The position numbers were made by a program, and so were the translations under genes. From positions 1,178,001 through 1,242,000 of the forward strand of contig JBCAQO010000013.1 in NCBI GenBank assembly GCA_039111635.1: 64,000 bases of DNA, given 5' to 3'. Shown piece by piece: positions 6,762-8,108 of the stretch. The notes below the pieces were generated by a model. It ran no database searches. It had not been told where the DNA came from and worked only from the letters and a program-made list of their open reading frames with translations. The stretch is from Heterobasidion occidentale (lineage: Eukaryota; Basidiomycota; Agaricomycetes; Russulales; Bondarzewiaceae). Position 1 is the stretch's first letter. Each line of letters begins with the position of its first letter.

Positions 6762-8108
6762 ATGTCTGCCATCGTAGCCACTGAGATCAAGCCCGGTGCT
6801 TTGACCATCGCTGGATCTGGCATCGCTAGCGTCGCCCACATCACTATGGAAACTCTCTCTCATATCAAAGAGGCCGACAGGGTCTATTACATCGTCTGCG
6901 ACCCACTCACGGAGGCGTTCATTCAGGACAACGCCACTGGAACCTGCTTCAATTTTAGCGTCTTCTATGACGAGCATAAGAGCAGGTACGATTCGTATGT
7001 CCAGATGTGTGAGGTAAGCGCTCTCTCAGCTTCTAATTTTTGCTCGAGCTGAAGTGTATGTGACGAAGGTCATGCTTAGAGACATTAGGGCAGGGCATGA
7101 CGTCCTTGGTGTCTTTTACGGCCACCCCGGCGTCTTCGTGTCTCCTTCCCACAGGGCAATCGCTTTGGCTCGCGAGGAGGGCTATAAAGCTAGGATGCTC
7201 CCCGGGGTGTCTGCCGAAGACTATATGTTTGCCGATCTTGAATTCGACCCCTCGCAGTATGGTTGCATGACGTGCGAAGCGACTGAAGTACTTCTGCGTG
7301 ACAGGCCGTTGAATCCCTCCGTCTATAACATCATCTGGCAGGTCGGAGGTGTCGGTATTGCCACCACGGAATTCAATGTGAGTACATACTATTCCACCGT
7401 TTCTGCCTCTGTTGACTCGTATCTTCCTGGCCTTTTCCAGAACAGCAAGTTTTATCTGCTCGTTAATCGTCTCGAGAAGGATTTCGGTCCTGATCATGAG
7501 GTCGTGCACTACATCGGTGCTATCCTTCCCCAATCTGCCACAACCATGGACGCGTACACCATTGCCGACCTTCGAAAAGAGGACGTCGTGAAACAATTCA
7601 GCGTCCTCTCGACACTTTACGTCCCCCTCGCGACATAATCCTCGCTAATGCCTCCATGGCTGGCATACTTGGAATGCCAAGCGCCCCCCTCAAGCTCTTG
7701 CGTGCGACGACGCGATGGGCTGGACCGAAGCTCACATATTCTGATGCTTACGGCCCTCGTGAGCGTAAGGCAGTCGCTCAAATCGATGTCCATGTCCCTC
7801 CGGAGGAGTCTAGGATCCTTCATGCTTCACTAGCGATGAGAAAGTTCATGACTGATCTGGCGTTGATGCCGAAACTTCTTGAGAAGTACAAGGCCGATCC
7901 GCCGGCAGTTGTCGAGGCTGCGGAGGGACTTACCGCTCGGGAGAGGTTTGCGCTGAACACTGGGAAACCCGGTCCTGTTTATGCCTTGATGTCGACTACC
8001 CGATCTGACATCGCTAATGGCCGAGAGCTGACTGAGGATGAGCTTGCCAAAGCAGTCGAACCGTCGGGATCCATCATCACCCTTAACTCGGTAGTCGCCA
8101 TCATTTAA
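6762..8108 (+). CDS. Borosin precursor: peptide alpha-N-methyltransferase fused to its core peptide (frameshifted in this sequence)
   Basis: Homologous to the omphalotin precursor OphMA, a SAM-dependent enzyme of precorrin-methylase fold that N-methylates backbone amides of its own C-terminus. Exons 6762-7013 and 7069-7377 are followed by a third from 7441; introns are 55 and 63 bp. Family residues keep their spacing: Y69, R75 and Y79 in FYDEHKSRYDSY match OphMA Y66, R72, Y76, and Y101 in VFYGHPG matches Y98. The MLPGVSAED loop follows. At the C run 7623-7627 the frame breaks: the upstream frame stops at 7636-7638 (252 aa), while the downstream frame continues clear homology (clasp region; MTDLALMPKLLEKYKADPP) to the stop at 8106. 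Bridged, it would be about 409 aa, close to OphMA's 417. The last residues, GSIITLNSVVAII, form a hydrophobic candidate core. This may be a one-base sequence error or a recent inactivation. No prolyl oligopeptidase gene lies nearby. Confidence 0.9.

What the first reader, a model, noticed from the sequence alone, without database searches (positions are those of the whole stretch)
6762..8108. Borosin-type self-methylating RiPP precursor with an unfamiliar core
The sequence shows an OphMA-like alpha-N-methyltransferase with family residues spaced as in OphMA (Y69/R75/Y79/Y101 match Y66/R72/Y76/Y98) and a C-terminal hydrophobic tail GSIITLNSVVAII in place of the omphalotin core. Established knowledge: fused borosin enzymes methylate backbone amides of their own C-terminus. 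Inference: the tail is the core of a peptide I cannot match to omphalotin, lentinulin or dendrothelin. Unlike the Val/Ile/Gly omphalotin core it includes Ser, Thr and Asn.
Basis: partly seen in the sequence, partly recalled or inferred. Interest (0 to 1): 0.9.

Follow-up and report, generated by a model that had tools for sequence, protein, structure and literature searches.

The report
Fungal self-methylating peptide precursor, frame broken
This is a fungal gene of a known kind, an enzyme that methylates its own tail to make a small peptide, with a tail of its own, but in this assembly its reading frame is interrupted, so it may be a disabled copy or a sequencing error.

Summary
The gene at 6762-8108 is a fused fungal borosin precursor of the OphMA/MroMA family. 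Its three pieces match solved borosin enzymes, best MroMA1. Y69, R75, Y79, Y101 and Q175 align with key OphMA residues. The tail GSIITLNSVVAII lies where cores lie. Across 60 relatives the last 13 residues agree at 10.9% (9.3% when shuffled), the enzyme part at 59.5%.

The gene has two introns, and its frame shifts within 7610-7640, so enzyme and tail do not share one frame here. A 95% identical, intact relative with tail GSIITLNSVIAII exists. And Ser, Thr or Asn in the tail is ordinary: 57 of 60 tails hold S/T/N/Q, 11 of 60 hold S, T and N together.

The gene was found once in the genome, with no S9 peptidase match on its contig. The organism looks close to Heterobasidion/Stereum. Verdict: a new member of a known kind; whether it works in this strain is open.

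The parts
6762..7013 (+). exon 1, N-terminal part of the alpha-N-methyltransferase (holds Y69, R75, Y79)
   Evidence: PDB phmmer to MroMA1, E 6.2e-28 for 6762-7052; register to OphMA
7014..7068 (+). intron 1 (GTAAGC...AAG)
   Evidence: of the candidates listed, the one that gives the MroMA1-colinear join VQMCE-VMLRDIRAG; absent from the continuous frame of relative P0121
7069..7377 (+). exon 2, holds Y101 and Q175
   Evidence: PDB E 1.5e-75 for 7054-7638; Pfam TP_methylase 31.8 bits, cut-off 27.8
7378..7440 (+). intron 2 (GTGAGT...CAG)
   Evidence: canonical ends and colinearity with MroMA1
7441..7635 (+). exon 3 in the first frame, end of the methyltransferase domain; stop at 7636-7638
7610..7640 (+). 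stretch within which the reading frame shifts; relatives read one frame here
   Evidence: joined motif found in one frame in 58 of 60 relatives (P0150 and P0170 do not fit the pattern); alignment; bridging introns sought
7656..8066 (+). clasp and helical region, open in the second frame
   Evidence: PDB E 3.5e-30 to MroMA1 263-394
8067..8105 (+). putative core tail GSIITLNSVVAII, followed by the stop 8106-8108
   Evidence: hypervariable position in 60 relatives; GSIITLNSVIAII in P0121

Best explanation
This is a fused fungal borosin precursor of the OphMA/MroMA kind: a SAM-dependent alpha-N-methyltransferase, then a clasp, then a short hydrophobic C-terminal core. In the family two chains pair head to tail and each methylates backbone amides in the tail of the other; proteases then free the tail. 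Here the expected product would be an N-methylated peptide drawn from GSIITLNSVVAII (inferred). No clustered prolyl oligopeptidase was found, so release would depend on enzymes encoded elsewhere (inferred). In this assembly the frame is interrupted between enzyme and clasp. As written, the locus would make an enzyme without clasp or tail, which should not self-methylate (inferred). I cannot tell whether the break is a base-call error or a recent real loss.
For: PDB matches of the three pieces. Key residues aligned to OphMA (roles from PMC6108569 passages) and kept in 60 relatives: Y69 59, R75 59, Y79 58, Y101 59, Q175 60. Tail near random between relatives, enzyme piece 59.5% and clasp 37.3% identical. 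Relatives that UniRef names as borosin or gymnopeptide precursors (pocMA 75%, gymMA1 52%). An intact relative, P0121, with almost the same tail. Head-to-tail dimer: PMC11395268, passages. Frame shift. One copy found. No S9 match on the contig.
Against: No expression or mass data. The frame break leaves activity in this strain unproven. The start of the core cannot be fixed from sequence; no OphMA-type follower is seen. The nearest solved relative is 68% identical in the enzyme piece, so the mechanism is by homology only. In the one close relative the tail is almost unchanged, so fast change of the tail is shown only at larger distances.
Confidence: 0.87

Rival explanations
1. Within the best explanation: the shift of frame is real, so the gene is a recently disabled precursor (pseudogene or null allele) and no peptide is made.
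For: Frame shift in the assembly. The neighbouring AROM gene can be spliced to one open frame of about 1,600 codons, so base errors are not common locally. In the enzyme piece 4 of 5 changes assigned to the window's lineage fall on sites held by 53, 55, 58 and 59 of 59 other relatives. No clustered release enzyme found.
Against: The other exons, splice ends, key residues and tail look intact. Over both pieces the assigned changes are even, 6 for the window and 5 for P0121, 7 unassigned, two-sided p = 1. AROM was spliced with intron ends chosen for an open frame, so a shift inside an intron range would be missed.
Confidence: 0.45
2. Within the best explanation: the shift of frame is a sequencing or assembly error and the gene is an active borosin precursor in this fungus.
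For: No second lesion seen; 95% (enzyme) and 97% (clasp) identity to an intact relative. That relative, P0121, is one uninterrupted 409-aa frame on contigs of at most 1,942 bases, which suggests a spliced transcript.
Against: AROM in the same window can be read without such a break. No reads can be inspected here.
Confidence: 0.5
3. An unrecognised intron or a programmed frameshift joins the two frames.
For: GT-AG pairs that keep an open frame exist.
Against: Each deletes residues kept in relatives and none has a GTRAG donor; relatives read through in one frame.
Confidence: 0.05
4. The tail is not a core but a conserved structural end.
For: It is almost unchanged in the one close relative.
Against: In 60 relatives the right-justified last 13 residues match at 10.9%, against 9.3% after shuffling within tails.
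Confidence: 0.05

Closest known systems
MroMA1/MroMA2 (Mycena rosella; PDB 7twk, 7twl)
   Same: Colinear over enzyme and clasp; short hydrophobic C-terminal tail; 68% identical in the enzyme piece
   Different: Tail ATAFIIIYIVQG in the solved MroMA1 chain (P0138) against GSIITLNSVVAII; the window's frame is interrupted
OphMA (omphalotin precursor, Omphalotus olearius)
   Same: The five tested active-site residues and the overall layout
   Different: 51% identical in the enzyme piece. OphMA has a C-terminal recognition sequence after its core and lies in a cluster with OphP and tailoring genes (PMC7878506, first of six parts of the text); neither was found here
pocMA, named by UniRef a type I borosin cyclic peptide precursor (P0128)
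   Same: 75% identical in the enzyme piece; EPSG before the tail here resembles EPSA there
   Different: Ends in EPSAALILLLV
P0121, unnamed protein from public reads
   Same: 95% identical in the enzyme piece, 97% in the clasp; tail GSIITLNSVIAII
   Different: Intact frame; one of the 13 tail residues differs

Membership tests
Fused fungal borosin precursor (OphMA/MroMA type) | TP-methylase-fold alpha-N-methyltransferase domain related to OphMA | tested here: met
Fused fungal borosin precursor (OphMA/MroMA type) | Active-site residues of OphMA (Y66, R72, Y76, Y98, Q172) | tested here: met
   roles in PMC6108569 passages. OphMA Y63 is S66 here, a position that varies among relatives
Fused fungal borosin precursor (OphMA/MroMA type) | Clasp and core fused in one chain with the enzyme | tested here: inconclusive
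   Both are present and colinear, but in two frames in this assembly
Fused fungal borosin precursor (OphMA/MroMA type) | Variable hydrophobic C-terminal core | tested here: met
   hydrophobic share of the last 13 residues 0.69, mean of 60 relatives 0.66
Fused fungal borosin precursor (OphMA/MroMA type) | Backbone N-methylation of the tail | not testable with these tools
   needs mass spectrometry
Omphalotin-type gene cluster | Clustered prolyl oligopeptidase (OphP type) | tested here: not met
   0 of 12 PF00326 and 0 of 2 PF02897 exon-level matches lie on contig C13 (the tool calls its counts lower bounds)
Omphalotin-type gene cluster | Clustered monooxygenases | tested here: inconclusive
   nearest of 124 listed P450 matches is about 103 kb away on C13, but only 92 of 349 candidates were scored
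Type I borosin | definition of the type | not tested
   the definition was not read; the label comes from UniRef's name of the relative pocMA

The most novel reading that the evidence does not exclude
The gene is active, and a fungus near Heterobasidion and Stereum makes an undescribed backbone-N-methylated peptide from GSIITLNSVVAII, with methylation reaching Ser, Thr or Asn amides, released without any clustered protease.
Probability: 0.3. Interest if true: 0.4.

Novelty: new member of a known kind. Interest (0 to 1): 0.25.

Why it matters
Many borosin precursors are predicted (50 putative clusters in one survey, as told in PMC9233826, passages), but few mature products are known (PMC11395268, passages). 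This adds an orphan precursor with a tail of its own. It also warns that core predictions from raw sequence must check that enzyme and core share one frame.

Tried and rejected
A bridging intron was sought over 7480-7800 and rejected. A second copy in the genome was sought with both protein pieces and with PF00590: the window gene alone matched well. The C-terminal piece gave two further weak matches (E 0.143, on C2 and C23), and PF00590 a locus on C1; I examined none of these three. The lone PF02897 locus (C3) was compared with solved structures through one 150-aa frame: GmPOPB-type chains first (E 1.5e-11; the chains are listed as prolyl oligopeptidase, the GmPOPB name is recalled), OphP next (1.6e-8); too short to say whether it is a macrocyclase or a housekeeping enzyme. 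The upstream repeats were tested as a possible mobile element: besides itself, the 1-kb stretch has one weak match of 74 bases in the genome. Changes polarised against P0121 gave no overall excess in the window lineage. A first attempt to splice AROM failed because my ranges were too narrow; a wider one worked.

Literature: five searches. 'borosin' with 'Heterobasidion' gave 0 papers. 'pocMA', 'MroMA1' or 'MroMA' gave 25 papers, of which the 10 listed are on other subjects by their titles. The key survey, Quijano et al. 2019, was seen only as cited by others. I did not search whether this tail is in print. No structure was predicted, since a solved relative at 68% identity exists.

The 60 relatives are 60 of the 120 listed (815 found), 386 to 430 residues long. 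I dropped fragments, shorter models, and more distant or odd models. Some kept rows may have wrongly predicted C-termini, which would raise tail diversity. The tree used 37 relatives. The follower pattern is crude: it hit 6 of 60 and missed some rows that look alike to the eye (such as P0182, P0188 and P0191).

Full report
What is there. The + strand from the ATG at 6762 encodes a protein of the OphMA/MroMA family. Compared piece by piece with the sequences of solved structures, 6762-7052 matches MroMA1 at E 6.2e-28, 7054-7638 matches MroMA1/MroMA2 at 1.5e-75 and OphMA at about 6e-55, and 7656-8108 matches MroMA1 residues 263-394 at 3.5e-30. Pfam finds TP_methylase above its cut-off in the second piece only. 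Two introns, 7014-7068 and 7378-7440, follow from colinearity with MroMA1.

Active site. Aligned with OphMA (P0190, one residue short at its start, so numbered +1), the window has Y69, R75, Y79, Y101 and Q175 at OphMA Y66, R72, Y76, Y98 and Q172. In the OphMA work the R72A, R72K, Y76F, Y98F and Y98A mutants showed no methylation on purification, while Y63F, Y66F, Q172A and W400A were reduced (PMC6108569, passages). In 60 relatives the five positions are kept in 59, 59, 58, 59 and 60 rows. OphMA Y63 is S66 here, a position that varies among relatives.

The frame break. The first frame stops at 7636-7638, and conserved sequence goes on in the neighbouring frame. The shift lies within 7610-7640. 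Relatives read through in one frame: a motif scan finds the joined motif in 58 of 60 rows; P0150 and P0170 do not fit the pattern. The GT-AG pairs found in 7480-7800 that would bridge the frames each delete residues that relatives keep, and none has a GTRAG donor. As a control on base quality, the pentafunctional AROM gene at 9787-14951 can be spliced to an open frame of about 1,600 codons; 12 choices of intron ends work, and I did not pick among them. A shift hidden inside an intron range would be missed. So errors are not common here, but one error in the borosin gene cannot be excluded.

Is it decaying? P0121 is 95% identical in the enzyme piece, 97% in the clasp, and intact. Of the changes that five nearby relatives could polarise, 6 fall to the window and 5 to P0121, with 7 unassigned (two-sided p = 1): no overall excess. 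In the enzyme piece alone it is 5 to 2, and 4 of those 5 hit sites held by 53, 55, 58 and 59 of 59 other relatives; in the C-terminal piece it is 1 to 3. That is a weak hint at most. In the tree the window's end branch (0.09) is longer than that of P0121 (0.013), but the last three residues of the piece are out of frame and were included.

Is a close relative transcribed? P0121 is one 409-residue frame on contigs of at most 1,942 bases, source 'lgn'. Of the lgn entries that I read, 8 of 8 run on into intron 2 unspliced, while 4 of 4 (P0121, P0129, P0161, P0168) are uninterrupted, all on contigs under 2 kb. The 8 came from a search with the exon 2 frame, which favours such pieces. The likeliest reading is that the source does not splice and that the uninterrupted ones are transcripts; intronless genes, or a gene caller that splices, are not excluded.

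The tail. The last 13 residues, GSIITLNSVVAII (8067-8105), sit where family cores lie. Between 60 relatives (1,770 pairs) the enzyme piece averages 59.5% identity, the clasp 37.3%, the aligned last 16 positions 15.7% (1,465 pairs usable), and the right-justified last 13 residues 10.9%, against 9.3% (SD 0.18) when each tail is shuffled. The tail is thus not conserved non-core sequence at this distance. Its make-up is ordinary: 57 of 60 tails contain S, T, N or Q; 19 contain N, 41 T, 40 S, and 11 all of S, T and N; the hydrophobic share is 0.69 against a mean of 0.66. A crude pattern for an OphMA-like follower hit 6 of 60 rows; the window's tail shows none to the eye.

Surroundings. The gene was found once in a 45-Mb genome of 159 contigs. 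None of 12 PF00326 and 2 PF02897 matches lies on its contig. The nearest listed P450 match is about 103 kb off, though only 92 of 349 candidates were scored. Pfam was run on 27 translated stretches of the window and 6 of the 23 ORFs listed for the 20 kb upstream. They gave a DUF1989 gene, AROM, NACHT-like and ankyrin genes, a gamma-tubulin complex gene, an S4 domain, RCC1, weak zinc fingers, and a GNAT acetyltransferase about 7.7 kb upstream of the gene; no S9 peptidase, monooxygenase or O-acyltransferase. Most of the 80 window ORFs were not scanned. The omphalotin cluster holds OphP, monooxygenases and O-acyltransferases (PMC7878506, first of six parts). In omphalotin biosynthesis the first cut is ascribed to an unidentified host protease (PMC12235650, passages), so an enzyme acting from elsewhere is not far-fetched.

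Organism. The window's RCC1 gene is closest to an unnamed protein (97%) and, among named ones, to Heterobasidion irregulare (83%) and Stereum hirsutum (69%). That these belong to the Russulales is recalled. The borosin's nearest named relatives are instead from Rhizopogon vinicolor (77%; Boletales, recalled). The tree puts window plus P0121 (100/99) in a supported set of 14 rows with Rhizopogon, Ceratobasidium and unnamed proteins (99/99). Patchy descent or transfer are both possible; I did not test them.

Verdict. The kind is known, the member is new to the collections searched here, and whether it works in this strain is open. Interest is low to moderate.

Noticed in passing
window 5884-6547: Diverged direct repeats upstream of the gene, spaced about 290-330 bases (77-93% alike in the closer copies); besides itself, the 1-kb stretch around them has one weak match in the genome.
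   Followed up: partly
window 4328-5125 (-): DUF1989 gene (PF09347) in two pieces, next to the borosin gene and divergent from it.
   Followed up: no
L020 8219-9034 (+), about 7.7 kb upstream of the gene: GNAT acetyltransferase-like ORF; no link to the borosin gene was tested.
   Followed up: no
window 18338-30290 (+): NACHT-like (NPHP3_N) ORF followed by ankyrin arrays, resembling fungal NLR-like genes (likeness recalled).
   Followed up: no
window 9787-14951 (+): Pentafunctional AROM gene downstream; can be spliced to one open frame.
   Followed up: yes
relatives such as P0122-P0127, P0130 and P0132, Rhizopogon vinicolor: Rhizopogon vinicolor holds many borosin-like precursors with different tails, several named partial; multiple OphMA homologues in two Rhizopogon species are mentioned in PMC9258550 (passages), which found none in R. 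roseolus.
   Followed up: no
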